Shown here: one piece after another, positions 11,830 through 63,686 of the stretch
Numbering within the stretch: the stretch's first letter is position 1
Layout of the letters: each line of letters starts with the position of its first letter
Source of the DNA: Astrocystis sublimbata
Taxonomy: Eukaryota > Ascomycota > Sordariomycetes > Xylariales > Xylariaceae
DNA: 64,000 bases
Reading direction: 5' to 3'
NCBI GenBank assembly: GCA_022453515.1
Contig: JAJNNY010000092.1
Coordinates: 49,381-113,380, forward strand
Position numbers and translations under genes: made by a program
Notes under the pieces: generated by a model
The model's database searches: none
Told to the model about the DNA's origin: nothing
Seen by the model: only the letters and a program-made list of their open reading frames with translations

Positions 11830-11834
11830 CCTAA

Positions 11835-18842: not shown

Positions 18843-18847
18843 CCTAA

Positions 18848-32956: not shown

Positions 32957-33458
32957 AATAAACAGGAAATAATTATAAAATAATAAAAAAATAAATATCT
33001 ATTTTTTATTTTTAACCCATTATCCTATCACTATATTATTCTATGTGTTATTTATATACCTCTCTTATCTAAGGGGACAAAGGGGTTGAATGCTAAGCAA
33101 TCGGTATTGTTTTTAAATCACCCGACGTTGATTACAAACGTCTTATATTACATGCGTCACATTACAATAGGCACAATAGCATTGTTTCATAATAGACATT
33201 GATATATAAATTATTGTAACCGCACCCTCACACTTCCCGGAGGGTCGGAGCTGCCACCGAGGTCTTGGTCAGGGCTATGCATGACAGAAGAAACTCTCAA
33301 ATGAAGCTCCAGTACAGGACCATTTTCTCCTACTTCCATCTCTAGCTGTCCTATGTCCTGTCCTGCTCAATATCTCCCAGTAATCTTCCCAAATAACAGA
33401 GATCCTCCCCATGACCACAAGTCGTCCACACCTAATCCACCTATGCTCATGCCCTTCC
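32957..33458. other. AT-rich intergenic start of arm A
   Basis: About 500 bp; 32957-33060 is nearly all A/T. The block gcaccctcacacttcccggagggtcgg (33224-33250) recurs in altered form at about 35142-35170, as part of a duplicated 3' flank shared with the relic at 34885-35215. Confidence 0.55.
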
Positions 33459-34397
33459 CTACATCCAGGGACGACGAGGCTCGAAAGGAGCAGCTTGACA
33501 TATTTGTTTGACCGTCTTCGCATTGTAGCGGGGGCATGGCCTGGTGCTGCGGATGGGAACATGTGAATTTGAAAAATGAGCCCCATTCCGCACACTGGGC
33601 TGACCTGGGATTTTGGCACCCAGTCTGCGGCGCGGGCGGGCGGTGTGCAGGATGGGTGTGATAGGCGAGTTCCCAAAATACATCCCATTGGAAGCACCGG
33701 CGGACTGTTTGGGTATTTTCGGGTGGTGTAGTGTTGGCAGAGCTCGTGACGAATGCTCTTTCTTGCCACATGGAGGCAGGGCTTTCAATAGCGACCCCAT
33801 TCCGAAGGGACAGACAGTATTGTTCTTTTCGTCCAGTCGGTTGACTTTTTGTTGCATGGGTTGTATAGATTTTGTTGGCGGCATTGACTGATTAGATGTA
33901 AACAGCCACTTCTTCCCAAAGACACCGACGGTCTCGAAGCTTCCGTCAAATTGGTCGTTGCGTTCCGCCCAATAATTCGCCACAAGCTCATAGGCTTTCC
34001 ATTTAACCTCGTTTGTGAGTTCTTCCATGGTCTTTGCTCGCTTGGGCCGAGGAATCTCATAGTCGTATTCCTCTGCGTATTCGCCGTCGGCTTGTCGCTT
34101 GCGAGCGTTAGGAATTGAATCTCTCTCGATATATATGATGTCATTATCATCATCGGAACTCGTTGCCTTTGAGCCTGAGGGCTGAGGTGAGCCTAGCTCT
34201 TGAACCACACGGTGTGGTGGCTTATTGTGGGCGAGACGAGATAGTGCTCGGGTTGTTTTGACAAGAGCGGTGCAAGCATTGAGCACGGAGTTGGAGTTAA
34301 TGTCCTGGCCTTCGGTGACGAACCCAGCGCTCATCATCTTCTGTCCCGCCTGGTTGACGGGGGTTTCGTTGATATCACGCATGTTCGCGGAATCCAT
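33459..34397 (-). CDS. disordered basic hypothetical protein, family P2
   Basis: A single frame of 312 aa, with a likely 5'UTR intron upstream (gtaagt...gatag, mirrored at 62124-62205). No known domain. It has an acidic DDDNDIIYIE block followed by a Lys/Arg-rich segment (RPKRAKT) that looks like a nuclear signal, a helix-prone VKWKAYELVANYWAERND region, and an Arg/Pro-rich C-terminus. The D-rich/IYIE/KR pattern, the promoter and the 5'UTR intron are shared with the PWSW protein at 35362-36531, so the two are distant paralogs. An identical copy is at 62246-63184. Function unknown; nuclear location is inference. Confidence 0.6.
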   Translation of the reverse strand: MDSANMRDINETPVNQAGQKMMSAGFVTEGQDINSNSVLNACTALVKTTRALSRLAHNKPPHRVVQELGSPQPSGSKATSSDDDNDIIYIERDSIPNARKRQADGEYAEEYDYEIPRPKRAKTMEELTNEVKWKAYELVANYWAERNDQFDGSFETVGVFGKKWLFTSNQSMPPTKSIQPMQQKVNRLDEKNNTVCPFGMGSLLKALPPCGKKEHSSRALPTLHHPKIPKQSAGASNGMYFGNSPITPILHTARPRRRLGAKIPGQPSVRNGAHFSNSHVPIRSTRPCPRYNAKTVKQICQAAPFEPRRPWM

Positions 34398-34884
34398 CTT
34401 GACAACGAGGTGACTTGTGTGAATGTGGAGAGTCAGACTATCGGAGTGAGATCGTGATTAGCCGGGCACTTGATGAAGTGACGTGCATATGCCTGTATCA
34501 AGGAAAGGTGGCAGACTTACAGAATGTGAGGCAACTGCGGGCGAATAGACGACAGTATTACTTTCGTATTAGAAGTAATAGTGTGTAATGATTGAGAGTG
34601 CAGCCAGAAGTATGTAGCAATCAAGTGATGCTTGTGTGTGTATGTGGAGGCAAGTCTCGAGTTTTCCTTTAGATTTGTTTTGGTATGTGGTCCAAGTTGA
34701 TGATGTAGAAGGAAAGAAAAAGATAAGACGAAGGGTGGAGGGAAGGGCTCCTTATATAGCCATGAGGTGAGCCCAAGTAATGAATGCAGACTGGTTGCCT
34801 TCTATAGCCGCGAGGTGAGCCCAAGTAGCGAATGCAGGCAAGTAGTGAATGCAGGCATGTAGTGAATGCAGACTAGTTGCCTTC
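34398..34884 (-). promoter_or_regulatory. promoter and 5'UTR intron of P2 gene, with internal repeats
   Basis: On the minus strand this region has a TATA-like ctatataagg and a repeated tgcattcactacttgggct unit, followed by ccttccctccacc and a pyrimidine-rich tract. The same order occurs in the promoter of the PWSW gene (about 36842-36960). A 5'UTR intron with a gctaat branch site lies before the ATG. Confidence 0.6.
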
Positions 34885-35215
34885 TATATAGGTCGTGGAC
34901 GAATTCTTTCTATTGCCACATGTAGGAAGTGCTGTGAATAGTGACCCTATTTCGAAGAGACCGATAGTATTCAATCGGTTAACTGTACGTTGCGAGGAGT
35001 GTGTAGATCATATCGGGGGATTTGAGTGAAGATAGGCTTTATATAACGACCCCTTTCCCAAGGGGCCAATGGCGTCTTGCGCATAATTATCACATCATAA
35101 TAAGGACATCGGTATATAGGAGCAAATGAGGTAATATATTGAGCACCCTCGCATTCGCGGAGGGATCGAAACGCCACTAAAGTGAAGCAAAGTCTCAAGG
35201 TAGGTGAAGTAGGTA
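34885..35215 (-). pseudogene. relic of a third P2-family copy
   Basis: DNA at 34900-35020 matches part of the P2 coding region at 33745-33885 (shared gacgaat-ct-tcttgccacatg, aatagcgaccc/aatagtgaccc, cagtattgtt/tagtattcaa), and 35095-35170 matches the P2 3' flank (gcaccctcgcattcgcggaggg). Frames are broken and the middle of the gene is missing. So a third copy was once inserted between the two live ones. Confidence 0.65.
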
Positions 35216-35361
35216 GATACATGAACCATTGTCAAAATATCATTCCTCCCATGGCACGTGGCCCGATCTTCTCAGCCCGCCCTGCCTTTAAGGCATATAT
35301 ATCGCGCAGTGATGACAAATCCCCTCGCATCCAGCCTCGCAGTGTACAGTGCACCGGGCTC

Positions 35362-36531
35362 CTACAAGAACGGAGTGCGTTGAGATCGAGACGCACCCTT
35401 GGCCTGGGCCTGAGCAATCTCGCGTCTGGCTTGATACGGCATGGTATCCTCCCAGCTCCAGGGGCGCTCACCGTCCAGTTGGAACGATGCGGCTGAACGC
35501 TTAGATGTGGCTGCGCCATCGGCTTTGGCTGCGTCGCGTGTGGTATTCTTAGTGCCGGTCATCTCTGATGAACGGGGCCGCTCGTCTCGACGTGGGAACA
35601 TGGCCGACGGAGGTGCGGGGGTGGGTTTTGTTTGGGTGGTGGAGGGCTTTCCAAACATTGGTCTTTTGTTCTTGGGGATCTCATGCCAAGACCAGGGTCT
35701 CTCGTCCCGGAGCTTCATTATGGCGGGCGGAGATGTGTTTGTAGGTTTTTTCTGGATTGGCGAGCTACCGTCCAGAGGCTGTCCCATGGCCGACGGAGAT
35801 GCGGGTGTGGTTTTTTTGGTAATCGCGGGACTCGCGACAGGCATCGGTCTCTTCACCTCAGGACTAGCGTCCCGAAGCTGCACCGCGGCCGGCGACTTTG
35901 TGAATGTGGTGTTTTTCTGGTTTGTAGAGTTTGCTCCGAACCTTGGTCTTTTGTCTTCGGGAATACTGTCCCAAGACCAAGGTCGCTCTCCTCGAAGCTG
36001 CACCATGGAGGACAAAGGCTCGCATGCAGGCTTCTTGTTGATTGTTGGCTCTGTGGTGTTCACCATTGCTGGTTTTGCTGGCTGGCTGTGAACATCGCTC
36101 CAGGACCAAGGTTTTTCATCTCCAAGTTGGATCAATGGAGATCTTGATGTGCCTGTCTTTTTGGCTGCATCTTGTTCGGCCCAAAGCAGTTTCAAGCGTA
36201 AAAGCTCCAGTGCGGCCACGTCTTGGGCTGGTGGTGTTCCCATACGATTCGGCCGCTTCTGCGGAGGCGTCTCGACGTTGCAATTGTTTGCCTCCGAGCT
36301 TTCAGCCCGGCGCTTGAGGTTCTTTTGAACAGGCCGTGTCTCAATGTAAATGAGATCATCGTCCTTGTCGCCGCCACTCGCTGTCTTCGAGTTGGACAGT
36401 TGCCGAGCAGGTTGCTTTCCTGCTGCACGGCTAGGCACTGGTTTTTTGGAGACAAGAGTCGGCAGTGCTCGGCGTTTGGCGACACTCGAGGCAAAGGGAG
36501 AGGGCTTATCGGTTGATCCGAAGTAGGCCAT
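35362..36531 (-). CDS. PWSW-repeat disordered protein, family P1
   Basis: 389 aa in one exon, with a 5'UTR intron upstream (mirrored at 59973-60049). After a DKDDDLIYIE block and a basic segment (LKRRAE, QKRPNR), the protein consists of about seven degenerate units of about 30-45 residues. The best units read L-R-[DG]-E-[RK]-P-W-S-W-x-x-I-P-x-x-K-R-P-x-F-G; PWSW itself occurs four times and three units have lost it. Ser/Pro/Lys/Thr linkers separate them. No known domain is recognised. It may be a nuclear binding platform in which the PWSW box is a short linear motif; that is inference. The copy in arm A' (60112-61282) has a frameshift. Confidence 0.65.
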   Translation of the reverse strand: MAYFGSTDKPSPFASSVAKRRALPTLVSKKPVPSRAAGKQPARQLSNSKTASGGDKDDDLIYIETRPVQKNLKRRAESSEANNCNVETPPQKRPNRMGTPPAQDVAALELLRLKLLWAEQDAAKKTGTSRSPLIQLGDEKPWSWSDVHSQPAKPAMVNTTEPTINKKPACEPLSSMVQLRGERPWSWDSIPEDKRPRFGANSTNQKNTTFTKSPAAVQLRDASPEVKRPMPVASPAITKKTTPASPSAMGQPLDGSSPIQKKPTNTSPPAIMKLRDERPWSWHEIPKNKRPMFGKPSTTQTKPTPAPPSAMFPRRDERPRSSEMTGTKNTTRDAAKADGAATSKRSAASFQLDGERPWSWEDTMPYQARREIAQAQAKGASRSQRTPFL

Positions 36532-38091
36532 ATTCGCGAAGATGCAGCGACGTCACAGTGTATGTGAAGATAGGCTCAAGGATTGCTAGCAACTGCGAGA
36601 TCGTAATCAGCTGGGCGCCCAGGAATGTGATGTCCATATCTTACGATCAGGCGGCGATGCTTGACTTACGGAGCATAAGGCAGACGCCGGTGACAGTGAC
36701 GGTGAGTCAACAGGACTGTCACAACCTTAATAGCAGTAAGAGTTTATCAAGATCAAGACTGTGTCGAGATCTAGAGCGTAGTAATGTATATAGAGCGATG
36801 GAGTAATACAGTCTTGAGTGTGAAGTCAAGATGGCAGTTACTCAGATGTGCGGCTCTTTTTGATGATGTAGAAGGAAAGAAAACGAAAAGGCCAATGGTG
36901 GAGGGAAGGGCTCCTGATATAGCCATGAGGTGAGCCCAAGTAGTGAATGCAGACTAGTTTGCCCCGCGATACAAATCGAAGATGGTTTCGCAGCAGCCAT
37001 ATTCAGTGTACCGTTGCCCATTGCCCATTGCCCATTGCGTACTAGGCACTCACTACCTGCGCGCCGTTTAGGCCAATGGTGGTTGCCCGGCATTCACTAT
37101 CCCATTGCCCATCCCCCATTACCCATTGTCTATTCACTATCTCGAAGCAAACACGTGATTGGAGCTGTATCGTCACTTGAGAGATAGAGGTGCCCCGAGC
37201 TTCGGACGCGTCGTATCTGGCGCGTAATCACGCGAGACGAACTGAGGTCTTGTCGGGTGGGCTGTTGGCTTGAGACTGGTGCTTACCGCGTATAGGTCTC
37301 GGTCCAACAGACTCTCTTTGTCCTCCCATCGTTTAAGCATTTTGTTGAGGCGTCACAATGGTATTGTTGGCATTTCATTCATTGGAGAACTGGCACTGGG
37401 GGTTGAGGCGCACATGCCATGTCTCGAGATCAGTTCTTCAATAAACTCTTTAAGTCCAGTTCACTTTAAATAAGAGGGTTGGCGTTTCCTCACGGGAATG
37501 GGGAATAAAGATAATAGCCGGCACGAAGCGAAGGACTGCAGTTTGAGTTGCTTTATTTTTAAGCATCCCTCAGTTGTGAGACACTTAGCTCTTATATATT
37601 TCTTTGGTTTGCGTTTTAGAAGGAAGTCCCCTGCTCAACCACAGGTTTGTATCCTGGGGCTTGATCCAGCCTGTGTAAAACCATCAAACTCACTCATCGA
37701 TGCAAAAGAGCATAGCAAATTATCAGAACAAATATATGGAAAACTAACTACTTGTTATGTGTGTGTGTGTGTGTGTTGTGTTGGTGGTATTCATGCATAC
37801 CTAGTGAGTAAAAGGGTAACGTTTTTAGCCTAGAAACCGAGGGTGACATGGAATTTGAGTATGAACAACTTTCCCTACATCGAGACTAAACAATGTATCT
37901 AGAAACTAGAGGATCACTTGAAAAGAGTTATGATTGAGAGCTCTCGGCCTCTAGTTGTTGTCCAACAAGTATCCCATACGACGTAACATCAACCGTCAAG
38001 CACAACATGCGCGCTTGGACATATGCATCTTAACTTCAATCAAGCACTTTCCCATCTCCATCCGAACCAAGTTTGGCCCAACTAGCAATTT
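36532..38091. other. P1 promoter and long intergenic region with short repeats
   Basis: About 1.56 kb. Next to P1 lies its 5'UTR intron and a promoter homologous to that of P2 (36842-36960). At 37013-37135 several copies of cccattg are spaced irregularly. A (gt)n microsatellite of about nine units is at 37759-37777. The rest holds nothing recognised, up to the 3' end of the epoxide hydrolase. Confidence 0.6.
37013..37135. repeat. cccattg short repeats
   Basis: At least six cccattg or near-identical heptamers in about 120 bp, some adjacent, plus two cattcactat blocks. Mirrored at 59507-59629. Confidence 0.7.
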
Positions 38092-39486
38092 CTAGCTCTT
38101 TATCACACCATGAGCACCTCCTCCCTTTCCAAACATCACACGGAGATCGCCGACTAGAAGTTCAGGTACCTCCCAAGCAGCAAAGTGACCGCCACGGTCG
38201 TGCTCTTGTTCTAAGACTACGTCTCCAAGACGGCGATTCCACGCGCGCGGTGTGCTGAACATCTCCCTGGGAAAGTATGAGAACCCCTGTCAAGATGATA
38301 ACTCGTTAGTTCAGTCTCACACAATATTCAGAGAGCGATTTATCATACCATCTTTGCCCCTGGCACAGCAACGCCAGGTCTTGCTGTCCAGTCGCCTCTG
38401 GTAGCTTCGTGGTATATGACGACGCTGGCAGCTGGGCCGGCACGACTGAACCAGTACAAGCTCACCCACTCACAGACCTCCTGTTCTGTCCAAGCATAGT
38501 TGTCTGTCCAAGAGACGAGCTTGTCATAGATCCAAGCCAGCAAGCCGACTGGGCTGTCTGCCAGTGCCACACCGATCGTATTAGGTCGCGTGTTCTGAAT
38601 CTTGAAGTAGCCCGAGCCATTCTCTTGATAGTCTTGGGCTGCCTTCAGGCCTGCGCTCTCCTTCTCAGTGTAGAGCCCCAAGAAGTGCGTCGCCAGGAAT
38701 GGTATGAATGAAAATGGAGATGTCACGGGTGGCGGAAGGGCAGCAATCAGGTTGAGATGAATGGCCCGTAGCGACTCGGGATAGAAGTTACCGATCGCGA
38801 GGGAAATCTGACTACCCTGAGAACAGATCAGGATGTGAGGAGGCTTTTCATGAAGGGATGTTACTCGATGATCAGACTTACCCAGTCTCCGCCCTGTGAG
38901 GCGTATTGCGTGTATCCCAGAAGCTGCATGAGTCGGTGACAAGTGTCGGCATACTGTCTAATTCCGAATCCGGGACCATCAACCCGGCTCGAGAATCCGA
39001 AGTTCGGCAATGATGGTGCGACAACATGGAATGCAGGCCCGCCATTCTTTTCGCTGTCTCTAAGCAGTGGCAGTATACGGGTCACTTCGTAGAAGCTTCC
39101 GGGCCCTGTGATGATTGATTTAGCTGTTGATTCTCATACGAATTTCAATTGGGGAACTGCTCGCACTCACAGCCATGAACAAAGAGTAATGGGATAGCAT
39201 CGGCAGACTTGCTACGCTGATGGACGAAGTGAATTTGGAGAGGGTCGAAGCCGTCGACGTTCACGGTCGCTTCATATTGCGGCAGCTCATTCAAGCGCTT
39301 CTCAAAAGCCCGCCAATTGAACTCGTCGGCCCAATACTTGGCGATGCGCTTGATGTCGTCGCTCGGCGGACCGCGTTCCCAGCTAGTCTCGAACAGCTCG
39401 GGTATTCTGGAAGATCGTAACCTCTGCTGCAGACCCTCTACATCGGATGAGGGGACATCGATCTGAAAGGGACGTACACTCTCCAT
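38092..39486 (-). CDS. epoxide hydrolase, alpha/beta-hydrolase with EHN domain
   Basis: Four exons, 39171-39486, 38882-39105, 38349-38816 and 38092-38286, give 400 aa. The N-terminal EHN domain starts at PFQIDVPSSDVEGLQQRL. The HGWPG oxyanion motif (about residue 104) is rebuilt across intron 1 and the nucleophile motif GGDWGS (Asp about 179) across intron 2. The catalytic His is in EHDRGGHFAAWE (about 370). This is the microsomal-epoxide-hydrolase-type fold common in fungi, about 400 aa. The enzyme opens epoxides to diols, in detoxification or in secondary metabolism. It is divergent from the SDR at 40723. An identical twin lies at 57156-58550. Confidence 0.93.
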
Positions 39487-40722
39487 GGGCAAAAAATTAC
39501 CCGAACATAAAAGATACAGTATGTTGAATGATGAAGCGAGAACAATTGAATTGTTCTCCCGGGCGCCCGCCTCTAATTCCAGGGCCAACGGGACAGGGAC
39601 AGGGGCAAGTTGGTGCGTGCTCTAGTTGGATGGGTCTCTGTACAGCCACCGGATCGGTTAAGAGTGCCCGCAGGTCAGCTTTGATCGCCAAAGTAGCACC
39701 CAGCTGAAGATTGGCTAGGGTTGAGGCAATCAGAGATAGCCACTTCAGTGATTTGGAAAGCTGCCTCATCACCATGAAGTAGGTAAATTGAGGACTCTTG
39801 AGATTTTAACAAAGCTCTTATGACCCAAGTGACGGATGTTATATTTTCTACGAGCAAAATAGCCTTCAATAAGAATATTTTTAACACTGATAAGCTCATA
39901 AGAGCTGAAATGTTTGTTTAGCTCGGTGTCTACATCGCCTCACACAAGAATCCTTCCCTCGATGTCTTGCTTCCTAGAGGAGCCTAACCGAGGAACATGA
40001 GAATAGCAGCTGAGGGTATTCATGGGTGATGGAATCTAGGCAGGAATTGGCTTCCAGAAAGTACACTGATTCGATGTCCATTTCATTACGCGCAGTCCGC
40101 GCTTACAACGCCGTCATCGATGAGTGGCTGAGGGATGCGCACGCCGTATGCAAACATGCCTCGTCAATATCGCCGCCTCGAGGTCAGACTTCCCCTAGAG
40201 AGAACACCCTCGGTGTGCAAAGAACCAAAAGACCTGCAGCCAACTGCACCCCCGCCGGGCGAGTTCGAGCCGCACGACGCCGCATGAGTGCCTTATCTAT
40301 AAGCCCGGTACGTATCCGTGTCTCACCTGCATCATATCATAGCCGCCGCAATATGTCGTGAATCGGAGCTGAGGCTCATATGTTATGCCGAACCGTGATA
40401 AATCCCCGAGCTCGGGCTAATTTTGGGCCGACTGGTGTTGCCCTCGATGCTACCCTAGTCTTAGACAAGGGCGCCACATTGATCCCTTTATGATCATTGG
40501 CAAAAAGCAACACTAGATGTTTCCGATACACATCCTAGCCTCGTCGGGTTGCCCGCATCTAGGGCGCGACATCATGACCGAAAGGCACTCCCTTCTTTCG
40601 ATTTTACCACATTCCCGCAAAGAATACTGCTGAATGTGGAAACACTAGATCGAGTACTCCTAAAGTTATCATAGCCTTCACAAACGTCGTCCAACTGTTC
40701 CTGCCTTATCTTTACAGCAGTC
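39487..40722. other. divergent promoter region, epoxide hydrolase / SDR
   Basis: About 1.24 kb between two divergent genes, so it can serve both. Only short motif-free ORFs are present. A near-palindrome ccgggcgcccgcc lies at 39560-39572. Confidence 0.45.
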
Positions 40723-41812
40723 ATGGTTAGAGCGGCGCCTGATTTCGGACTCACCCCTGAGAAAGAGGCCACCTTCCCCCAGTACCTGTATCGCCAATTC
40801 ATTGCGAAGACACCCGCATTGACGCGGCGCGATGCCGTCCTACATGGGATGACCGCCATCGTCACCGGGTCTAACACCGGACTTGGGTTGGAAGTGTCCC
40901 GCCAGCTTCTCGACCTTGGCCTGAGCAGACCCATTCTCGCCGTGCGCAGCACATCAAAGGGCAAGGCAGCCCGAAAAGAGCTCCTCTCAGGGTATACAAA
41001 TACCTGTGAGATTGAGATATGGACTTTGGATCTATCAGATTATGACTCCGTCGTCGGATTTGGCCAACAAGCCCACACCCTCCCTCGGCTCGACATAGCC
41101 GTGCTGAACGCCGGCGTCTTCAAAGTCACCGAGGAGTTCAACCCCAAAACCGGCATCGAGCAAGCCATTCAAATCAACTACTTGTCCAACGCCCTTCTCA
41201 TGTTGGTGCTACTCCCTGTTCTGCGCGCCAAGAAGCAACCATCGGCACCTACTCGGCTCGTCCTAGTCTCATCCGACGTCGCTGGCTGGGCCAAGTTTCC
41301 CGAACAAGGCGCAACACCCCTTCTCCCTGTCTTCAAGAAGTCTATGGACAAGTGGGACATGCACGAGCGCTACGCGACGTCTAAATTGCCTGGCCAGCTC
41401 TTCCTGACGGAACTCGCTGAGCGCGTGCCCCCCTCTGAGGTTATCATCGATGCGACGAACCCGGGGCTGTGTTACGGCTCGGAATTCCAACGGGAGGGCA
41501 ACGGGAAACTCCTGGGCTACATCTTCAAGACGTTCACACGGCTAGTGGGCAACTCTTGCAGCTTGGGTGCACGTACCATCACCCATGCTGCGGTCAAATT
41601 CGGGGAGGAGGCCCATGGGCAGTACATTGAGTGTGGAAAGCTACGGCCGTAAGTTCCCATCACATATCATCATGTGTAGTGAAGATTACTGATATAAGAA
41701 CTACAGTAAAGCAGCGATCATCTACAAGCCAGAGGGGGAGAGGCTCTCGAAGCAGTTGTGGGATGAGACTATGGCGAGTTTCTCATCTTTAGGGGTGGCG
41801 CAATCATTTTAG
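40723..41812 (+). CDS. short-chain dehydrogenase/reductase (SDR 1 of arm)
   Basis: Exons 40723-41648 and 41707-41812 (intron 41649-41706) give 343 aa. Cofactor motif TGSNTGLG (about residues 48-55), NAG in VLNAGVF, Ser block LVLVSSD, and a catalytic YATSK. The short exon 2 adds KAAIIYKPEGERLSKQLWDET, the usual C-terminal end of this fungal group. It is closely related in layout to the SDR at 45826, with the same intron place near the C-terminus, so the two probably share ancestry. Substrate unknown; neighbours suggest modification of a small metabolite. Confidence 0.9.
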
Positions 41813-42508
41813 GATGCTTGGCAGATACTTACAGCATGCTTGTATCAGAACAGAATCTTGTAACTAGGTGGTGATTGTTTCCATTTGGGGGGTTGAAAGG
41901 GGTAGGCTAGAATATCAACAAGTAAAATCACTTCACTTCATAAGTCTCTTATTACCACTTTACTCAACAGGCAAAGCGAAAGAAGCAGTTGACTTCATGC
42001 TCGGACGAGTGGGAGAGTTGGCTGAGTGACAGAGCGCTAAGTTAGACAAAATACTCATCCACTGACTACACTACGACTGTGGGCGGGCTCCAAAAACAAT
42101 ATATCAAGGATCACCGATACTTATTACGTAATCAACACACACTCAACTGTTATAACAGCGTTTGCATAACTGGCGATGAGAATGTAAAAACCGCACCGAC
42201 ACGTACGCAAACATATGATTTGCTAGGGTTGATGATTTTAAGCTACCTAACTATCGTAATACCAACTACCAACAACACAGATTGGTCTCAATCTGACTTC
42301 ACCCTTATGTCCACCTTCCTAGTATACTCTGGATAACTGGCTTCGTAACTACACAGCGTCGATTCGTCAGCTATCACAGATGCGTGTTTATGCTCCGAAA
42401 GTAACTCACCCAAGTAAGGCTGCCGCCACCCAGTACGCTAGTATATAGTGCACCACTTTCAACAGCCATAATGGAACCCAAAAGTCCGGAGTAGACACAG
42501 TCGAGCTG
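41813..42508. other. intergenic region between convergent SDR and cupin genes
   Basis: About 700 bp, both 3' ends point into it. No feature seen. Confidence 0.4.
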
Positions 42509-43114
42509 TCATAGCTCATGAGAAATGAGTTGAAAGGTCGACGGCTTCAAATTCGCCCTCCGACAGTCGCGTTGGTAGCCTACGAAGTTGCGCAGGAAGT
42601 TCTCGTCGAAGGAGTTGTCGAGGTCTTGGGGCTCAGCCCAGACTTTGAAGACGAGATCTTCGCTCGAAGTTGCGTGGGCCCAGAACCGATGTCTATAGTG
42701 TGAATGCTCAGTATGTGTGTGGATGATGAACATTTTCTGCAGGAGATGCGAGAGCTAACCTAGTCCCAGCGGGTATCTCGATGGTTCCGGAGCCCTTGGT
42801 GGCAGCTAGACGCTGCCCATTTCTCACCAAACCGAGGAGGCCTTTTTCCACTTGAAAGAACTCATTTTGCTGCCAGTGAATATGCCTGTGATGCACCACA
42901 TTTAGCATCCACCACTTTTCAGTTGTCATCGAGTTGGTTTCTTGAGGAACGTCGACGGTTAAGTCAGATGGTCTTACAATGGCGGGCCAGAGAGGCCGTC
43001 TCTGACGATCGGGTTATTGACAAAATGGGTTTCTCTCACGATCCATCGTCCATTCTCGTGAAGGAACTCAAAGAAGGCAGAGTCGTACACAGCAAGAAAG
43101 GTCGCATCATTTGC
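42509..43114 (-). pseudogene. cupin-domain protein, 3' part in normal order; start region inverted
   Basis: Minus-strand exons 42978-43114, 42760-42885 and 42509-42692 join in frame. They read ANDATFLAVYDSAFFEFL, the WIVRETHFVNNPIV block, then SGPPLHIHWQQNEFFQVEKG (cupin motif 1 with HxH and Glu), IEIPAGTRHRFWAH (motif 2 with His), and a C-terminal WAEPQDLD-FDENFLRN block. This is a one-cupin metal-binding fold of a fungal family. The frame closes at a TAA just upstream of exon 1, and no ATG exon is seen on this strand. The missing N-terminal segment appears on the + strand at 43111-43248. So the gene looks broken by a small inversion. Confidence 0.75.
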
Positions 43115-43248
43115 GACCACACTGCGGTGCTGGGGACGCCGTTATCATCACAGAATACGGCAATATCATGCGGTTTCGGTTATCTCCGAAGTTGGCGGTC
43201 GGGGATTCGCAGCTAGGCGTGAAGCCGATGATAGACAGTGCCGCCGCC
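43115..43248 (+). pseudogene. inverted N-terminal segment of the cupin gene
   Basis: On the + strand this stretch reads GDAVIITEYGNIMRF, then SPKLAVGDSQLGVKPMID with no ATG before it. It abuts, head to head, the first minus-strand cupin exon. Such a segment would fit directly before ANDATFLAVYD, where cupin proteins of this family have their N-terminal strand. Both arms carry the same arrangement. Confidence 0.55.
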
Positions 43249-53393: not shown

Positions 53394-53527
53394 GGCGGCG
53401 GCACTGTCTATCATCGGCTTCACGCCTAGCTGCGAATCCCCGACCGCCAACTTCGGAGATAACCGAAACCGCATGATATTGCCGTATTCTGTGATGATAA
53501 CGGCGTCCCCAGCACCGCAGTGTGGTC
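53394..53527 (-). pseudogene. inverted N-terminal cupin segment, arm A' copy
   Basis: Mirror of 43115-43248, same opposite orientation to the rest of the cupin gene. Confidence 0.55.
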
Positions 53528-54133
53528 GCAAATGATGCGACCTTTCTTGCTGTGTACGACTCTGCCTTCTTTGAGTTCCTTCACGAGAATGGACGATGGA
53601 TCGTGAGAGAAACCCATTTTGTCAATAACCCGATCGTCAGAGACGGCCTCTCTGGCCCGCCATTGTAAGACCATCTGACTTAACCGTCGACGTTCCTCAA
53701 GAAACCAACTCGATGACAACTGAAAAGTGGTGGATGCTAAATGTGGTGCATCACAGGCATATTCACTGGCAGCAAAATGAGTTCTTTCAAGTGGAAAAAG
53801 GCCTCCTCGGTTTGGTGAGAAATGGGCAGCGTCTAGCTGCCACCAAGGGCTCCGGAACCATCGAGATACCCGCTGGGACTAGGTTAGCTCTCGCATCTCC
53901 TGCAGAAAATGTTCATCATCCACACACATACTGAGCATTCACACTATAGACATCGGTTCTGGGCCCACGCAACTTCGAGCGAAGATCTCGTCTTCAAAGT
54001 CTGGGCTGAGCCCCAAGACCTCGACAACTCCTTCGACGAGAACTTCCTGCGCAACTTCGTAGGCTACCAACGCGACTGTCGGAGGGCGAATTTGAAGCCG
54101 TCGACCTTTCAACTCATTTCTCATGAGCTATGA
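53528..54133 (+). pseudogene. cupin gene 3' part, arm A' copy
   Basis: Exons 53528-53664, 53757-53882 and 53950-54133. Intron ends here are easy to read on the + strand (gtaaga...atcacag; gttagc...ctatag). Identical coding content to 42509-43114. Confidence 0.75.
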
Positions 54134-54829
54134 CAGCTCGACTGTGTCTACTCCGGACTTTTGGGTTCCATTATGGCTGTTGAAAGTGGTGCACTATATA
54201 CTAGCGTACTGGGTGGCGGCAGCCTTACTTGGGTGAGTTACTTTCGGAGCATAAACACGCATCTGTGATAGCTGACGAATCGACGCTGTGTAGTTACGAA
54301 GCCAGTTATCCAGAGTATACTAGGAAGGTGGACATAAGGGTGAAGTCAGATTGAGACCAATCTGTGTTGTTGGTAGTTGGTATTACGATAGTTAGGTAGC
54401 TTAAAATCATCAACCCTAGCAAATCATATGTTTGCGTACGTGTCGGTGCGGTTTTTACATTCTCATCGCCAGTTATGCAAACGCTGTTATAACAGTTGAG
54501 TGTGTGTTGATTACGTAATAAGTATCGGTGATCCTTGATATATTGTTTTTGGAGCCCGCCCACAGTCGTAGTGTAGTCAGTGGATGAGTATTTTGTCTAA
54601 CTTAGCGCTCTGTCACTCAGCCAACTCTCCCACTCGTCCGAGCATGAAGTCAACTGCTTCTTTCGCTTTGCCTGTTGAGTAAAGTGGTAATAAGAGACTT
54701 ATGAAGTGAAGTGATTTTACTTGTTGATATTCTAGCCTACCCCTTTCAACCCCCCAAATGGAAACAATCACCACCTAGTTACAAGATTCTGTTCTGATAC
54801 AAGCATGCTGTAAGTATCTGCCAAGCATC
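54134..54829. other. intergenic, arm A' mirror of 41813-42508
   Basis: Same content as its mirror. Confidence 0.4.
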
Positions 54830-55919
54830 CTAAAATGATTGCGCCACCCCTAAAGATGAGAAACTCGCCATAGTCTCATCCCACAACTGCTTCGAGAGCC
54901 TCTCCCCCTCTGGCTTGTAGATGATCGCTGCTTTACTGTAGTTCTTATATCAGTAATCTTCACTACACATGATGATATGTGATGGGAACTTACGGCCGTA
55001 GCTTTCCACACTCAATGTACTGCCCATGGGCCTCCTCCCCGAATTTGACCGCAGCATGGGTGATGGTACGTGCACCCAAGCTGCAAGAGTTGCCCACTAG
55101 CCGTGTGAACGTCTTGAAGATGTAGCCCAGGAGTTTCCCGTTGCCCTCCCGTTGGAATTCCGAGCCGTAACACAGCCCCGGGTTCGTCGCATCGATGATA
55201 ACCTCAGAGGGGGGCACGCGCTCAGCGAGTTCCGTCAGGAAGAGCTGGCCAGGCAATTTAGACGTCGCGTAGCGCTCGTGCATGTCCCACTTGTCCATAG
55301 ACTTCTTGAAGACAGGGAGAAGGGGTGTTGCGCCTTGTTCGGGAAACTTGGCCCAGCCAGCGACGTCGGATGAGACTAGGACGAGCCGAGTAGGTGCCGA
55401 TGGTTGCTTCTTGGCGCGCAGAACAGGGAGTAGCACCAACATGAGAAGGGCGTTGGACAAGTAGTTGATTTGAATGGCTTGCTCGATGCCGGTTTTGGGG
55501 TTGAACTCCTCGGTGACTTTGAAGACGCCGGCGTTCAGCACGGCTATGTCGAGCCGAGGGAGGGTGTGGGCTTGTTGGCCAAATCCGACGACGGAGTCAT
55601 AATCTGATAGATCCAAAGTCCATATCTCAATCTCACAGGTATTTGTATACCCTGAGAGGAGCTCTTTTCGGGCTGCCTTGCCCTTTGATGTGCTGCGCAC
55701 GGCGAGAATGGGTCTGCTCAGGCCAAGGTCGAGAAGCTGGCGGGACACTTCCAACCCAAGTCCGGTGTTAGACCCGGTGACGATGGCGGTCATCCCATGT
55801 AGGACGGCATCGCGCCGCGTCAATGCGGGTGTCTTCGCAATGAATTGGCGATACAGGTACTGGGGGAAGGTGGCCTCTTTCTCAGGGGTGAGTCCGAAAT
55901 CAGGCGCCGCTCTAACCAT
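54830..55919 (-). CDS. SDR 1, arm A' copy
   Basis: Exons 54994-55919 and 54830-54935; protein identical to that at 40723-41812. Confidence 0.88.
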
Positions 55920-57155
55920 GACTGCTGTAAAGATAAGGCAGGAACAGTTGGACGACGTTTGTGAAGGCTATGATAACTTTAGGAGTACTCGATCTAGTGT
56001 TTCCACATTCAGCAGTATTCTTTGCGGGAATGTGGTAAAATCGAAAGAAGGGAGTGCCTTTCGGTCATGATGTCGCGCCCTAGATGCGGGCAACCCGACG
56101 AGGCTAGGATGTGTATCGGAAACATCTAGTGTTGCTTTTTGCCAATGATCATAAAGGGATCAATGTGGCGCCCTTGTCTAAGACTAGGGTAGCATCGAGG
56201 GCAACACCAGTCGGCCCAAAATTAGCCCGAGCTCGGGGATTTATCACGGTTCGGCATAACATATGAGCCTCAGCTCCGATTCACGACATATTGCGGCGGC
56301 TATGATATGATGCAGGTGAGACACGGATACGTACCGGGCTTATAGATAAGGCACTCATGCGGCGTCGTGCGGCTCGAACTCGCCCGGCGGGGGTGCAGTT
56401 GGCTGCAGGTCTTTTGGTTCTTTGCACACCGAGGGTGTTCTCTCTAGGGGAAGTCTGACCTCGAGGCGGCGATATTGACGAGGCATGTTTGCATACGGCG
56501 TGCGCATCCCTCAGCCACTCATCGATGACGGCGTTGTAAGCGCGGACTGCGCGTAATGAAATGGACATCGAATCAGTGTACTTTCTGGAAGCCAATTCCT
56601 GCCTAGATTCCATCACCCATGAATACCCTCAGCTGCTATTCTCATGTTCCTCGGTTAGGCTCCTCTAGGAAGCAAGACATCGAGGGAAGGATTCTTGTGT
56701 GAGGCGATGTAGACACCGAGCTAAACAAACATTTCAGCTCTTATGAGCTTATCAGTGTTAAAAATATTCTTATTGAAGGCTATTTTGCTCGTAGAAAATA
56801 TAACATCCGTCACTTGGGTCATAAGAGCTTTGTTAAAATCTCAAGAGTCCTCAATTTACCTACTTCATGGTGATGAGGCAGCTTTCCAAATCACTGAAGT
56901 GGCTATCTCTGATTGCCTCAACCCTAGCCAATCTTCAGCTGGGTGCTACTTTGGCGATCAAAGCTGACCTGCGGGCACTCTTAACCGATCCGGTGGCTGT
57001 ACAGAGACCCATCCAACTAGAGCACGCACCAACTTGCCCCTGTCCCTGTCCCGTTGGCCCTGGAATTAGAGGCGGGCGCCCGGGAGAACAATTCAATTGT
57101 TCTCGCTTCATCATTCAACATACTGTATCTTTTATGTTCGGGTAATTTTTTGCCC
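55920..57155. other. divergent promoter region, arm A' mirror of 39487-40722
   Basis: Same content as its mirror. Confidence 0.4.
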
Positions 57156-58550
57156 ATGGAGAGTGTACGTCCCTTTCAGATCGATGTCCCCTCATCCGAT
57201 GTAGAGGGTCTGCAGCAGAGGTTACGATCTTCCAGAATACCCGAGCTGTTCGAGACTAGCTGGGAACGCGGTCCGCCGAGCGACGACATCAAGCGCATCG
57301 CCAAGTATTGGGCCGACGAGTTCAATTGGCGGGCTTTTGAGAAGCGCTTGAATGAGCTGCCGCAATATGAAGCGACCGTGAACGTCGACGGCTTCGACCC
57401 TCTCCAAATTCACTTCGTCCATCAGCGTAGCAAGTCTGCCGATGCTATCCCATTACTCTTTGTTCATGGCTGTGAGTGCGAGCAGTTCCCCAATTGAAAT
57501 TCGTATGAGAATCAACAGCTAAATCAATCATCACAGGGCCCGGAAGCTTCTACGAAGTGACCCGTATACTGCCACTGCTTAGAGACAGCGAAAAGAATGG
57601 CGGGCCTGCATTCCATGTTGTCGCACCATCATTGCCGAACTTCGGATTCTCGAGCCGGGTTGATGGTCCCGGATTCGGAATTAGACAGTATGCCGACACT
57701 TGTCACCGACTCATGCAGCTTCTGGGATACACGCAATACGCCTCACAGGGCGGAGACTGGGTAAGTCTGATCATCGAGTAACATCCCTTCATGAAAAGCC
57801 TCCTCACATCCTGATCTGTTCTCAGGGTAGTCAGATTTCCCTCGCGATCGGTAACTTCTATCCCGAGTCGCTACGGGCCATTCATCTCAACCTGATTGCT
57901 GCCCTTCCGCCACCCGTGACATCTCCATTTTCATTCATACCATTCCTGGCGACGCACTTCTTGGGGCTCTACACTGAGAAGGAGAGCGCAGGCCTGAAGG
58001 CAGCCCAAGACTATCAAGAGAATGGCTCGGGCTACTTCAAGATTCAGAACACGCGACCTAATACGATCGGTGTGGCACTGGCAGACAGCCCAGTCGGCTT
58101 GCTGGCTTGGATCTATGACAAGCTCGTCTCTTGGACAGACAACTATGCTTGGACAGAACAGGAGGTCTGTGAGTGGGTGAGCTTGTACTGGTTCAGTCGT
58201 GCCGGCCCAGCTGCCAGCGTCGTCATATACCACGAAGCTACCAGAGGCGACTGGACAGCAAGACCTGGCGTTGCTGTGCCAGGGGCAAAGATGGTATGAT
58301 AAATCGCTCTCTGAATATTGTGTGAGACTGAACTAACGAGTTATCATCTTGACAGGGGTTCTCATACTTTCCCAGGGAGATGTTCAGCACACCGCGCGCG
58401 TGGAATCGCCGTCTTGGAGACGTAGTCTTAGAACAAGAGCACGACCGTGGCGGTCACTTTGCTGCTTGGGAGGTACCTGAACTTCTAGTCGGCGATCTCC
58501 GTGTGATGTTTGGAAAGGGAGGAGGTGCTCATGGTGTGATAAAGAGCTAG
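57156..58550 (+). CDS. epoxide hydrolase, arm A' copy
   Basis: Exons 57156-57471, 57537-57760, 57826-58293 and 58356-58550; 400 aa, identical to the copy at 38092-39486. HGWPG and GGDWGS motifs both arise by splicing, which supports the intron calls. Confidence 0.9.
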
Positions 58551-60111
58551 AAATTGCTAGTTGGGCCAAACTTGGTTCGGATGGAGATGGGAAAGTGCTT
58601 GATTGAAGTTAAGATGCATATGTCCAAGCGCGCATGTTGTGCTTGACGGTTGATGTTACGTCGTATGGGATACTTGTTGGACAACAACTAGAGGCCGAGA
58701 GCTCTCAATCATAACTCTTTTCAAGTGATCCTCTAGTTTCTAGATACATTGTTTAGTCTCGATGTAGGGAAAGTTGTTCATACTCAAATTCCATGTCACC
58801 CTCGGTTTCTAGGCTAAAAACGTTACCCTTTTACTCACTAGGTATGCATGAATACCACCAACACAACACACACACACACACACATAACAAGTAGTTAGTT
58901 TTCCATATATTTGTTCTGATAATTTGCTATGCTCTTTTGCATCGATGAGTGAGTTTGATGGTTTTACACAGGCTGGATCAAGCCCCAGGATACAAACCTG
59001 TGGTTGAGCAGGGGACTTCCTTCTAAAACGCAAACCAAAGAAATATATAAGAGCTAAGTGTCTCACAACTGAGGGATGCTTAAAAATAAAGCAACTCAAA
59101 CTGCAGTCCTTCGCTTCGTGCCGGCTATTATCTTTATTCCCCATTCCCGTGAGGAAACGCCAACCCTCTTATTTAAAGTGAACTGGACTTAAAGAGTTTA
59201 TTGAAGAACTGATCTCGAGACATGGCATGTGCGCCTCAACCCCCAGTGCCAGTTCTCCAATGAATGAAATGCCAACAATACCATTGTGACGCCTCAACAA
59301 AATGCTTAAACGATGGGAGGACAAAGAGAGTCTGTTGGACCGAGACCTATACGCGGTAAGCACCAGTCTCAAGCCAACAGCCCACCCGACAAGACCTCAG
59401 TTCGTCTCGCGTGATTACGCGCCAGATACGACGCGTCCGAAGCTCGGGGCACCTCTATCTCTCAAGTGACGATACAGCTCCAATCACGTGTTTGCTTCGA
59501 GATAGTGAATAGACAATGGGTAATGGGGGATGGGCAATGGGATAGTGAATGCCGGGCAACCACCATTGGCCTAAACGGCGCGCAGGTAGTGAGTGCCTAG
59601 TACGCAATGGGCAATGGGCAATGGGCAACGGTACACTGAATATGGCTGCTGCGAAACCATCTTCGATTTGTATCGCGGGGCAAACTAGTCTGCATTCACT
59701 ACTTGGGCTCACCTCATGGCTATATCAGGAGCCCTTCCCTCCACCATTGGCCTTTTCGTTTTCTTTCCTTCTACATCATCAAAAAGAGCCGCACATCTGA
59801 GTAACTGCCATCTTGACTTCACACTCAAGACTGTATTACTCCATCGCTCTATATACATTACTACGCTCTAGATCTCGACACAGTCTTGATCTTGATAAAC
59901 TCTTACTGCTATTAAGGTTGTGACAGTCCTGTTGACTCACCGTCACTGTCACCGGCGTCTGCCTTATGCTCCGTAAGTCAAGCATCGCCGCCTGATCGTA
60001 AGATATGGACATCACATTCCTGGGCGCCCAGCTGATTACGATCTCGCAGTTTGCTAGCAATCCTTGAGCCTATCTTCACATACACTGTGACGTCGCTGCA
60101 TCTTCGCGAAT
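58551..60111. other. intergenic and P1 promoter, arm A' mirror of 36532-38091
   Basis: Contains the (ac)n microsatellite at 58865-58883, cccattg-type repeats (as caatggg) at 59507-59629, and the P1 5'UTR intron at 59973-60049 (gtaagt...cgcag), followed by an extra A at about 60051 relative to arm A. Confidence 0.6.
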
Positions 60112-61282
60112 ATGGCCTACTTCGGATCAACCGATAAGCCCTCTCCCTTTGCCTCGAGTGTCGCCAAACGCCGAGCACTGCCGACTCTTGTCTCCAAAAA
60201 ACCAGTGCCTAGCCGTGCAGCAGGAAAGCAACCTGCTCGGCAACTGTCCAACTCGAAGACAGCGAGTGGCGGCGACAAGGACGATGATCTCATTTACATT
60301 GAGACACGGCCTGTTCAAAAGAACCTCAAGCGCCGGGCTGAAAGCTCGGAGGCAAACAATTGCAACGTCGAGACGCCTCCGCAGAAGCGGCCGAATCGTA
60401 TGGGAACACCACCAGCCCAAGACGTGGCCGCACTGGAGCTTTTACGCTTGAAACTGCTTTGGGCCGAACAAGATGCAGCCAAAAAGACAGGCACATCAAG
60501 ATCTCCATTGATCCAACTTGGAGATGAAAAACCTTGGTCCTGGAGCGATGTTCACAGCCAGCCAGCAAAACCAGCAATGGTGAACACCACAGAGCCAACC
60601 ATCAACAAGAAGCCTGCATGCGAGCCTTTGTCCTCCATGGTGCAGCTTCGAGGAGAGCGACCTTGGTCTTGGGACAGTATTCCCGAAGACAAAAGACCAA
60701 GGTTCGGAGCAAACTCTACAAACCAGAAAAACACCACATTCACAAAGTCGCCGGCCGCGGTGCAGCTTCGGGACGCTAGTCCTGAGGTGAAGAGACCGAT
60801 GCCTGTCGCGAGTCCCGCGATTACCAAAAAAACCACACCCGCATCTCCGTCGGCCATGGGACAGCCTCTGGACGGTAGCTCGCCAATCCAGAAAAAACCT
60901 ACAAACACATCTCCGCCCGCCATAATGAAGCTCCGGGACGAGAGACCCTGGTCTTGGCATGAGATCCCCAAGAACAAAAGACCAATGTTTGGAAAGCCCT
61001 CCACCACCCAAACAAAACCCACCCCCGCACCTCCGTCGGCCATGTTCCCACGTCGAGACGAGCGGCCCCGTTCATCAGAGATGACCGGCACTAAGAATAC
61101 CACACGCGACGCAGCCAAAGCCGATGGCGCAGGCCACATCTAAGCGTTCAGCCGCATCGTTCCAACTGGACGGTGAGCGCCCCTGGAGCTGGGAGGATAC
61201 CATGCCGTATCAAGCCAGACGCGAGATTGCTCAGGCCCAGGCCAAGGGTGCGTCTCGATCTCAACGCACTCCGTTCTTGTAG
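60112..61282 (+). pseudogene. PWSW-repeat protein P1, arm A' copy with a one-base frameshift
   Basis: The frame matches the 389-aa protein of arm A for about 340 residues, then one extra G (gcaggcc versus gcagcc, near 61132) shifts it to a stop at 61143. The lost part holds the last PWSW unit and the old stop lies at 61280-61282. The silent substitution at 60600 is the only other coding change. The shift could be a consensus error. Confidence 0.75.
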
Positions 61283-61427
61283 GAGCCCGGTGCACTGTAC
61301 ACTGCGAGGCTGGATGCGAGGGGATTTGTCATCACTGCGCGATATATATGCCTTAAAGGCAGGGCGGGCTGAGAAGATCGGGCCACGTGCCATGGGAGGA
61401 ATGATATTTTGACAATGGTTCATGTAT
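61283..61427. other. P1 3' flank, arm A'
   Basis: Short mirror of 35216-35361. Confidence 0.4.
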
Positions 61428-61758
61428 CTACCTACTTCACCTACCTTGAGACTTTGCTTCACTTTAGTGGCGTTTCGATCCCTCCGCGAATGCGAGGGTG
61501 CTCAATATATTACCTCATTTGCTCCTATATACCGATGTCCTTATTATGATGTGATAATTATGCGCAAGACGCCATTGGCCCCTTGGGAAAGGGGTCGTTA
61601 TATAAAGCCTATCTTCACTCAAATCCCCGATATGATCTACACACTCCTCGCAACGTACAGTTAACCGATTGAATACTATCGGTCTCTTCGAAATAGGGTC
61701 ACTATTCACAGCACTTCCTACATGTGGCAATAGAAAGAATTCGTCCACGACCTATATA
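61428..61758 (+). pseudogene. relic of third P2-family copy, arm A'
   Basis: Mirror of 34885-35215, with G4 instead of G5 near 61628. Confidence 0.6.
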
Positions 61759-62245
61759 GAAGGCAACTAGTCTGCATTCACTACATGCCTGCATTCACTA
61801 CTTGCCTGCATTCGCTACTTGGGCTCACCTCGCGGCTATAGAAGGCAACCAGTCCTGCATTCATTACTTGGGCTCACCTCATGGCTATATAAGGAGCCCT
61901 TCCCTCCACCCTTCGTCTTATCTTTTTCTTTCCTTCTACATCATCAACTTGGACCACATACCAAAACAAATCTAAAGGAAAACTCGAGACTTGCCTCCAC
62001 ATACACACACAAGCATCACTTGATTGCTACATACTTCTGGCTGCACTCTCAATCATTACACACTATTACTTCTAATACGAAAGTAATACTGTCGTCTATT
62101 CGCCCGCAGTTGCCTCACATTCTGTAAGTCTGCCACCTTTCCTGATACAGGCATATGCACGTCACTTCATCAAGTGCCCGGCTAATCACGATCTCACTCC
62201 GATAGTCTGACTCTCCACATTCACACAAGTCACCTCGTTGTCAAG
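61759..62245 (+). promoter_or_regulatory. P2 promoter and 5'UTR intron, arm A'
   Basis: TATA-like ctatataagg at 61884-61893, preceded by repeated tgcattcactacttg units (61783-61870). 5'UTR intron at 62124-62205 (gtaagt...gatag). Two one-base differences from arm A (extra C near 61853; T missing at 62143). Confidence 0.6.
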
Positions 62246-63184
62246 ATGGATTCCGCGAACATGCGTGATATCAACGAAACCCCCGTCAACCAGGCGGGAC
62301 AGAAGATGATGAGCGCTGGGTTCGTCACCGAAGGCCAGGACATTAACTCCAACTCCGTGCTCAATGCTTGCACCGCTCTTGTCAAAACAACCCGAGCACT
62401 ATCTCGTCTCGCCCACAATAAGCCACCACACCGTGTGGTTCAAGAGCTAGGCTCACCTCAGCCCTCAGGCTCAAAGGCAACGAGTTCCGATGATGATAAT
62501 GACATCATATATATCGAGAGAGATTCAATTCCTAACGCTCGCAAGCGACAAGCCGACGGCGAATACGCAGAGGAATACGACTATGAGATTCCTCGGCCCA
62601 AGCGAGCAAAGACCATGGAAGAACTCACAAACGAGGTTAAATGGAAAGCCTATGAGCTTGTGGCGAATTATTGGGCGGAACGCAACGACCAATTTGACGG
62701 AAGCTTCGAGACCGTCGGTGTCTTTGGGAAGAAGTGGCTGTTTACATCTAATCAGTCAATGCCGCCAACAAAATCTATACAACCCATGCAACAAAAAGTC
62801 AACCGACTGGACGAAAAGAACAATACTGTCTGTCCCTTCGGAATGGGGTCGCTATTGAAAGCCCTGCCTCCATGTGGCAAGAAAGAGCATTCGTCACGAG
62901 CTCTGCCAACACTACACCACCCGAAAATACCCAAACAGTCCGCCGGTGCTTCCAATGGGATGTATTTTGGGAACTCGCCTATCACACCCATCCTGCACAC
63001 CGCCCGCCCGCGCCGCAGACTGGGTGCCAAAATCCCAGGTCAGCCCAGTGTGCGGAATGGGGCTCATTTTTCAAATTCACATGTTCCCATCCGCAGCACC
63101 AGGCCATGCCCCCGCTACAATGCGAAGACGGTCAAACAAATATGTCAAGCTGCTCCTTTCGAGCCTCGTCGTCCCTGGATGTAG
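62246..63184 (+). CDS. disordered basic protein P2, arm A' copy
   Basis: 312 aa, identical to the copy at 33459-34397. Confidence 0.6.
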   Translation: MDSANMRDINETPVNQAGQKMMSAGFVTEGQDINSNSVLNACTALVKTTRALSRLAHNKPPHRVVQELGSPQPSGSKATSSDDDNDIIYIERDSIPNARKRQADGEYAEEYDYEIPRPKRAKTMEELTNEVKWKAYELVANYWAERNDQFDGSFETVGVFGKKWLFTSNQSMPPTKSIQPMQQKVNRLDEKNNTVCPFGMGSLLKALPPCGKKEHSSRALPTLHHPKIPKQSAGASNGMYFGNSPITPILHTARPRRRLGAKIPGQPSVRNGAHFSNSHVPIRSTRPCPRYNAKTVKQICQAAPFEPRRPWM

Positions 63185-63686
63185 GGAAGGGCATGAGCAT
63201 AGGTGGATTAGGTGTGGACGACTTGTGGTCATGGGGAGGATCTCTGTTATTTGGGAAGATTACTGGGAGATATTGAGCAGGACAGGACATAGGACAGCTA
63301 GAGATGGAAGTAGGAGAAAATGGTCCTGTACTGGAGCTTCATTTGAGAGTTTCTTCTGTCATGCATAGCCCTGACCAAGACCTCGGTGGCAGCTCCGACC
63401 CTCCGGGAAGTGTGAGGGTGCGGTTACAATAATTTATATATCAATGTCTATTATGAAACAATGCTATTGTGCCTATTGTAATGTGACGCATGTAATATAA
63501 GACGTTTGTAATCAACGTCGGGTGATTTAAAAACAATACCGATTGCTTAGCATTCAACCCCTTTGTCCCCTTAGATAAGAGAGGTATATAAATAACACAT
63601 AGAATAATATAGTGATAGGATAATGGGTTAAAAATAAAAAATAGATATTTATTTTTTTATTATTTTATAATTATTTCCTGTTTATT
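63185..63686. other. AT-rich intergenic end of arm A'
   Basis: Mirror of 32957-33458. Confidence 0.5.

What the first reader, a model, noticed from the sequence alone, without database searches (positions are those of the whole stretch)
32957..63686. Giant 2 x 15.4-kb palindrome with no spacer
Two arms of 15,365 bp meet head to head at 48321/48322 and differ at about seven positions, six of them one-base indels. Every gene in the right half is a mirror copy. A zero-spacer palindrome of this size is very rare in nature, since it is unstable in replication. Possible origins: sister-chromatid fusion after a break, fold-back replication, a hairpin-ended replicating molecule, or a long-read fold-back artefact. 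The turn lies in a small perfect AT palindrome, which favours fold-back priming, in the cell or in the library.
Basis: partly seen in the sequence, partly recalled or inferred. Interest (0 to 1): 0.88.

Follow-up and report, generated by a model that had tools for sequence, protein, structure and literature searches.

The report
Fold-back sequencing artefact at contig end
The giant mirror-image stretch is really in the assembled letters, but similar mirror turns sit at many other contig ends of this fungal assembly, so it is almost certainly a long-read fold-back artefact and not a chromosome feature.

Summary
The palindrome is in the letters: arms 32957-48321 and 48322-63686, 15,365 bp each, no spacer. 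The window's end is the contig's end (C182, 113,380 bp). And the sequence turns again at 63686/63687 and starts a noisy third copy, so the order is A-A'-A. The genome is Astrocystis sublimbata (42.6 Mb, 189 contigs). Base rate: 10 of 58 sampled contig ends have an inverted copy in their own contig (5 of 39, a lower bound; 5 of 19). Three contigs show copies in +,-,+ order. Ten turns besides turn 1 were read at the centre. Two of them are contradicted by long contigs that run straight through (C126, C179). Turn 2 sits on a pre-existing hairpin whose loop is kept. Best explanation: fold-back chimeric molecules in the long-read library, which the assembler followed. Whole-genome amplification is the likeliest source, but I could not read how the library was made. 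An in-vivo inverted amplicon is not excluded (about 4%).

The parts
32957..48321 (+). Arm A, 15,365 bp, joined on its left to unique sequence
   Evidence: Inverted self-match 32940-63701 at 99.92%; arm comparison
48322..63686 (-). Arm A', mirror copy of A
   Evidence: six of its differences from A are not shared by contig C100
63687..64000 (+). Start of a third copy of A, 314 bases, raw-read-like quality, ends at the contig end
   Evidence: Direct match to 32946-33267 at 96.6%; contig length 113,380
48316..48329 (.). Turn 1: short palindrome TTAATATATATTAA
32940..32960 (.). Unfolded hairpin used at turn 2: TATTTAAA-TACGT-TTTAAATA (8-bp stem, 5-base loop)
   Evidence: 29 of 48,150 tested window positions centre a hairpin of stem 7 or more and loop 5 or less
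63677..63707 (.). Turn 2 in folded form, loop bases of the unfolded hairpin kept, two bases short of it
   Evidence: same turn in contig C100
47794..48144 (+). First reading frame of a gene resembling a FAD-linked oxidase (name recalled, no database match), running into AT-rich DNA; mirrored in A'
   Evidence: Frame; no Pfam, protein or PDB match for its first 98 residues

Best explanation
The palindrome is an assembly of fold-back chimeric molecules made during library preparation, not the structure of the chromosome. A strand's 3' end folded back on a short nearby inverted repeat, primed on itself and copied the strand it had come from, giving A-A'. The same event at the other end gave A-A'-A. 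Near 48.3 kb, where the DNA turns AT-rich, such molecules carried contig C182 on, and the assembler followed them to the contig end. SHOWN: A-A'-A at the contig end; turns of the same kind at many other contig ends; straight contigs that contradict two of them; turn 2 on a pre-existing hairpin with the loop kept. INFERRED: that it happened in vitro; that a strand-displacing amplification step was the source (likelier than missed adapters); that straight reads were lacking at 48.3 kb.
For: 10 of 58 sampled contig ends have an inverted copy in their own contig: 5 of 39 (only 40 of 147 candidates scored) and 5 of 19 (all 37 scored). By contig: 9 of 19 under 100 kb, 1 of 20 larger. C63, C81 and C30 hold +,-,+ copies like C182. 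Centres read and palindromic: C59, C23, C14, C41, C32, C13 (95.4-99.9%), C68 and C171 (96.0%, 96.7%), C132 (2 x 18.5 kb to the contig end), C100. C59 equals C126 for 403 of 403 bases, then snaps back, while C126 runs straight; C32 folds where C179 runs straight. Third pass is of low quality. Literature: 44-48% of PacBio reads after amplification held palindromes, up to 15 in one read, 0.5% in the control (PMC6218980).
Against: Turn 2 occurs in two contigs, so probably in more than one read; amplified copies or repeated passes of one molecule would explain it, but so would a real structure. No contig shows the straight form at turn 1. An amplification step is not documented to me: the likely source paper is not held. 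The MDA paper holds plain hairpin self-priming to be a minor route in MDA (PMC1855051). 1 of 20 large contigs only was positive, so long contigs with such an end, like C182, are a minority.
Confidence: 0.93

Rival explanations
1. Same artefact class, other cause: PacBio molecules whose hairpin adapters were missing or not recognised, so that successive passes of one 15.4-kb insert were read as A-A'-A, without amplification. (A sub-version of the best explanation; its confidence is the share of that 0.93 that I give to this cause.)
For: A-A'-A order and an insert of library-like size; two contigs with the same turn 2 could be passes of one molecule. PMC6218980 names missed or missing SMRTbell adapters as a source of palindromic reads in unamplified data, 0.5% of reads there.
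Against: Turn 2 and the C59 turn keep loop bases of the unfolded sequence, which a blunt insert end would not give; no inserted adapter-like sequence lies at the turns read by eye. The many turns at contig ends are more than a rare failure would suggest.
Confidence: 0.2
2. Real inverted amplicon by ODIRA: template switches at two short interrupted inverted repeats released a hairpin-capped molecule that became an inverted dimer circle or an A-A'-A triplication in the chromosome.
For: A-A'-A order; turn 2 on a pre-existing interrupted inverted repeat, loop kept, seen in two contigs.
Against: No right flank behind a third copy anywhere. Yeast ODIRA junctions favour spans of 40-80 bp (PMC10766183, passages); here 14 and 21 bp. 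Similar turns sit all over the assembly, which one adaptive event cannot explain.
Confidence: 0.03
3. A natural chromosome end without a telomere: a broken end or covalently closed hairpin that is read round the corner, or a sister-chromatid fusion with later breakage.
For: C182 holds no TTAGGGTTAGGG on either strand and no right flank was found. C132 also ends in a mirror whose turn has no telomere array.
Against: The turn at 32946 is at an inner point that the same contig passes straight. C59 and C32 turn in the middle of long straight contigs, which an end-specific process does not explain. The arm carries ordinary genes such as two short-chain dehydrogenases.
Confidence: 0.02

Closest known systems
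Palindromic chimeric reads after whole-genome amplification (PMC6218980; MDA chimeras, PMC1855051)
   Same: Inverted copies of one fragment joined head to head, sometimes several times over; short complementary stretches at the joins; spread over the genome
   Different: There seen in reads; here carried into assembled contigs. Amplification of this library is inferred, not documented
Hairpin products of strand-displacement synthesis at short inverted repeats (PMC9484634)
   Same: Turns at short inverted repeats of the template
   Different: There a T7 enzyme mix on lambda DNA
Fold-back read artefacts in long-read data (PMC12870357)
   Same: Second half maps to the same place on the other strand, often without bases in between
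   Different: Reported at about 0.55-0.6% of Nanopore genomic reads and virtually none in PacBio HiFi; here far more visible, because seen at contig ends
ODIRA inverted triplication in yeast (PMC10766183)
   Same: A-A'-A order; junction at a pre-existing short interrupted inverted repeat
   Different: No right flank behind the third copy; shorter spans at the turns; many other turns in the same assembly
Fold-back inversions at short-loop hairpins in yeast (PMC7467729)
   Same: Short stem, loop of a few bases
   Different: There selected rearrangements, short loops mainly where Mre11 or Sae2 is defective; here many in one unselected assembly

Membership tests
Fold-back (palindromic) long-read artefact | Second half is the reverse complement of the first, with little or no spacer | tested here: met
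Fold-back (palindromic) long-read artefact | Turns occur at many unrelated places of the same data set | tested here: met
   10 of 58 sampled contig ends; centres read
Fold-back (palindromic) long-read artefact | Straight form of the same place coexists | tested here: inconclusive
   Met at turn 2 (C182's own first pass), C59 (C126), C32 (C179); not found at turn 1 and, not for C14, C23, C41
Fold-back (palindromic) long-read artefact | Raw reads are palindromic, depth over the arm is 1x | not testable with these tools
   No reads held
Whole-genome amplification chimera | Several fold-backs in one molecule | tested here: met
   A-A'-A in C182; +,-,+ copies in C63, C81, C30 (copies only)
Whole-genome amplification chimera | Library was amplified | not testable with these tools
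   Method paper not found or not held
[quoted passage not shown]
   Met at turn 2; unfolded form of turn 1 unknown
ODIRA inverted triplication | Three full copies, middle one inverted, distal flank intact | tested here: not met
   Third copy is 314 bases to the contig end; no right flank found
ODIRA inverted triplication | Amplified segment contains a replication origin | not testable with these tools
   No origin map for this fungus in the tools

The most novel reading that the evidence does not exclude
The strain really carried a hairpin-capped or circular inverted amplicon (A-A')n of 15.4 kb, released at two short AT-rich hairpins. The many other mirror ends of the assembly would then mean that this fungus fold-back-amplifies its genome broadly.
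Probability: 0.04. Interest if true: 0.7.

Novelty: not a real feature. Interest (0 to 1): 0.08.

Why it matters
It is a warning more than a discovery. This public assembly holds mirror copies at many contig ends, so gene counts, duplicated genes and inverted repeats taken from it are inflated there; the genes of 32957-63686 should be counted once. A simple screen, contig ends against their own contig, finds such cases without the reads. If the in-vivo reading were true it would be a striking case of broad fold-back amplification in a fungus.

Tried and rejected
A sister-chromatid fusion or hairpin-ended replicon was considered first. ODIRA then looked attractive: A-A'-A order, turn 2 on a pre-existing interrupted inverted repeat, the same turn in two contigs. 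The base-rate screen turned this round. A blunt turn (missed adapter) does not reproduce the kept loop bases at turn 2. C100's perfectly symmetric centre (TACGTA, where the unfolded copy reads TACGT) may be a consensus of both strands of an asymmetric loop; that is inference. No right flank of A was found. The first 98 residues of the oxidase-like gene gave no Pfam or PDB match, and a protein search scored none of its 4 candidates; that search only considers proteins of similar length, so it does not test full-length relatives. Rfam gave no match at gathering scores.

Limits of the screen. In one search only 40 of 147 candidates were scored, and by my recount 12 of the 39 ends did not list even themselves, so only 27 were effectively seen; among the larger contigs C176 was not seen at either end. 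C32's start (700 bases of poly-A) and C26's start (reads N) were left out. A 63-base inverted match at 94% near C41's start was not counted. The five positives and contig C30 were not read at their centres. C68, C13, C171, C30, C132, C100 and C182 are extra finds and are not in the 10 of 58. The loops at the C32 and C68 turns were judged by eye, not computed.

Full report
WHAT IS IN THE SEQUENCE. The window is G000:C182:49381-113380 and C182 is 113,380 bp long, so base 64000 is the contig end. Self-comparison finds one inverted match, 32940-63701, at 99.92%. The arms, 32957-48321 and 48322-63686, are each 15,365 bp. Outside the last few bases at the centre they differ at eight places, seven one-base indels and one substitution.

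The sequence turns again. From 63687 it is a direct copy of 32946-33267 at 96.6%, and the contig stops 314 bases into this third pass. The order is flank-A-A'-A. A separate contig of 11,979 bp, C100, is A' (43689 down to 32940) followed by A (32940 to 34195): it crosses the same second turn. At the six arm differences between 34.5 and 36.6 kb C100 agrees with the left arm each time, so the right arm is probably the one in error.

THE TWO TURNS. Turn 1 lies in TTAATATATATTAA, 48316-48329. No other place in the genome holds the right end of A, so its unfolded form is unknown. Turn 2 can be compared with the straight first pass, which carries the hairpin TATTTAAA-TACGT-TTTAAATA at 32940-32960. 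Only 29 of 48,150 tested window positions centre a hairpin of stem 7 or more and loop 5 or less. C182's folded form keeps the loop bases (63677-63707, two bases short of the straight form); C100's has one base more. A strand that folds on itself and is extended would look like this; a blunt end closed by an unseen adapter would not.

THE ORGANISM. A GH43 protein of the window is identical over 96% of the query to one named Astrocystis sublimbata, on a contig of exactly 113,380 bp. It is a fungus of the Xylariaceae.

THE BASE RATE, WHICH DECIDES. I took both ends of 20 contigs and searched 39 of these 40 ends as 90-mers against the same genome (one poly-A end left out). Only 40 of 147 candidates were scored, and 27 of the 39 ends listed at least themselves. 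Five have an inverted copy in their own contig: C14, C23, C32, C41, C59. A second set, 19 of 20 contig starts (one reads N), was fully scored, 37 of 37: five again, C54, C63, C72, C81, C135. Together 10 of 58. By contig: 9 of 19 under 100 kb and 1 of 20 larger ones (C135, 1.29 Mb). C63, C81 and C30 hold copies in +,-,+ order, as C182 does.

CHECK OF THE CENTRES. The predicted centres of C59, C23, C14, C41, C32 and C13 were read: all six stretches of 731-801 bases are palindromic at 95.4-99.9%, and the C126 stretch read with them is not. C68 (96.0%) and C171 (96.7%) are too. C132 ends in a 2 x 18.5-kb mirror, 259224-296260, at 98.9%; its right end is the contig end.

STRAIGHT CONTIGS. C59 equals C126 for 403 of 403 bases and then snaps back on GGC/GCC with 16 loop bases kept, whereas C126 (332 kb) runs straight on. 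C32 folds where C179 (978 kb) runs straight. C13 turns on TTATTAATAA, which C68 carries and passes before turning further on (read by eye). C54's end has one single copy in C110 (listing only). For C14, C23 and C41 one search found no straight copy beside the turn, as for turn 1. Many such rearrangements, some beside their straight forms, are not expected in the chromosomes of one strain; they are expected of chimeric molecules in a library.

HOW IT LIKELY AROSE. After amplification, 43.6 and 47.8% of Arabidopsis PacBio reads held palindromes, some up to 15, against 0.5% without (PMC6218980, background and one results section read). In MDA, 85% of 475 chimeras were inverted, most primed at 2-21 complementary bases; the same paper holds plain hairpin self-priming to be minor (PMC1855051, passages). 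Strand-displacing synthesis makes hairpins at short inverted repeats (PMC9484634, passages). Fold-back reads occur in about 0.55-0.6% of Nanopore genomic reads and virtually not in PacBio HiFi reads (PMC12870357, results section). I infer an amplification or strand-displacement step; I could not confirm it, for the paper that I recall as the likely source is not held.

WHY C182 FOLLOWED IT. From about 48141 the DNA is AT-rich. The gene that starts at 47794 has a good first exon, and the next stretch reads like a mutated continuation (VKYYNYNSINFLIVK; the likeness to FAD-linked oxidases is recalled). Eight of 20 sampled right contig ends have a G+C of 36% or less. Contigs of this assembly thus often stop in AT-rich DNA, perhaps a product of RIP (inference). 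Where straight reads give out, an assembler can follow fold-back reads (inference).

WHAT SPEAKS AGAINST. Turn 2 is in two contigs, so probably in more than one read; amplified copies or repeated passes of one molecule would give that too. Turn 1 has no straight counterpart. ODIRA would also give A-A'-A at short inverted repeats, but its yeast junctions favour spans of 40-80 bp (PMC10766183, passages), and a third copy should lead to a right flank, which was not found. Short-loop fold-backs in yeast were characteristic of mre11 and sae2 defects (PMC7467729, passages).

VERDICT. This is an artefact of library and assembly (0.93). An in-vivo amplicon stays possible at about 0.04.

Noticed in passing
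G000:C132:259224-296260 (loci L021-L024, L029): Second giant mirror at a contig end, 2 x 18.5 kb, centre 277747. Within 3 kb of the centre the arms differ at 156 places, 154 of them transitions; from 3 to 9.5 kb they have no substitution and three one-base gaps; 9.5-11.3 kb shows mixed errors. Short TTAGGG arrays are mirrored in it. The transitions near the centre are not explained by a simple fold-back; cross-mapped copies of a repeat or RIP are guesses.
   Followed up: partly
window 8988-23301: AT-rich block (30-40% G+C for much of 9-23 kb) with two pairs of direct repeats, one inside the other: 8988-9316 / 22973-23301 (93.6%) and 11833-12321 / 18350-18840 (88.2%). It looks like one LTR element nested in another; no target-site duplication was seen in the 12 flanking bases by eye.
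   Followed up: partly
window 43491-43930 (mirror 52713-53151): A 440-bp element with inverted ends of about 52 bp; part of it has copies of 86-87% in contigs C88 and C157. Contig C100 begins inside it.
   Followed up: partly
window 48141-48321: AT-rich stretch behind the first exon of the oxidase-like gene; the frame resembles a mutated continuation of the gene, as RIP leaking out of a neighbouring block might leave (resemblance recalled).
   Followed up: no
G000:C32:1-700 (L033): The first 700 bases of this contig are all A, another sign that contig ends of this assembly carry read-level junk.
   Followed up: no
G000:C171, centre near 27.7 kb (L079): A 129-kb contig whose start seems to be one palindrome of about 55 kb: 600 bases at the centre read at 96.7%, the extent inferred from mirrored repeat copies.
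   Followed up: partly
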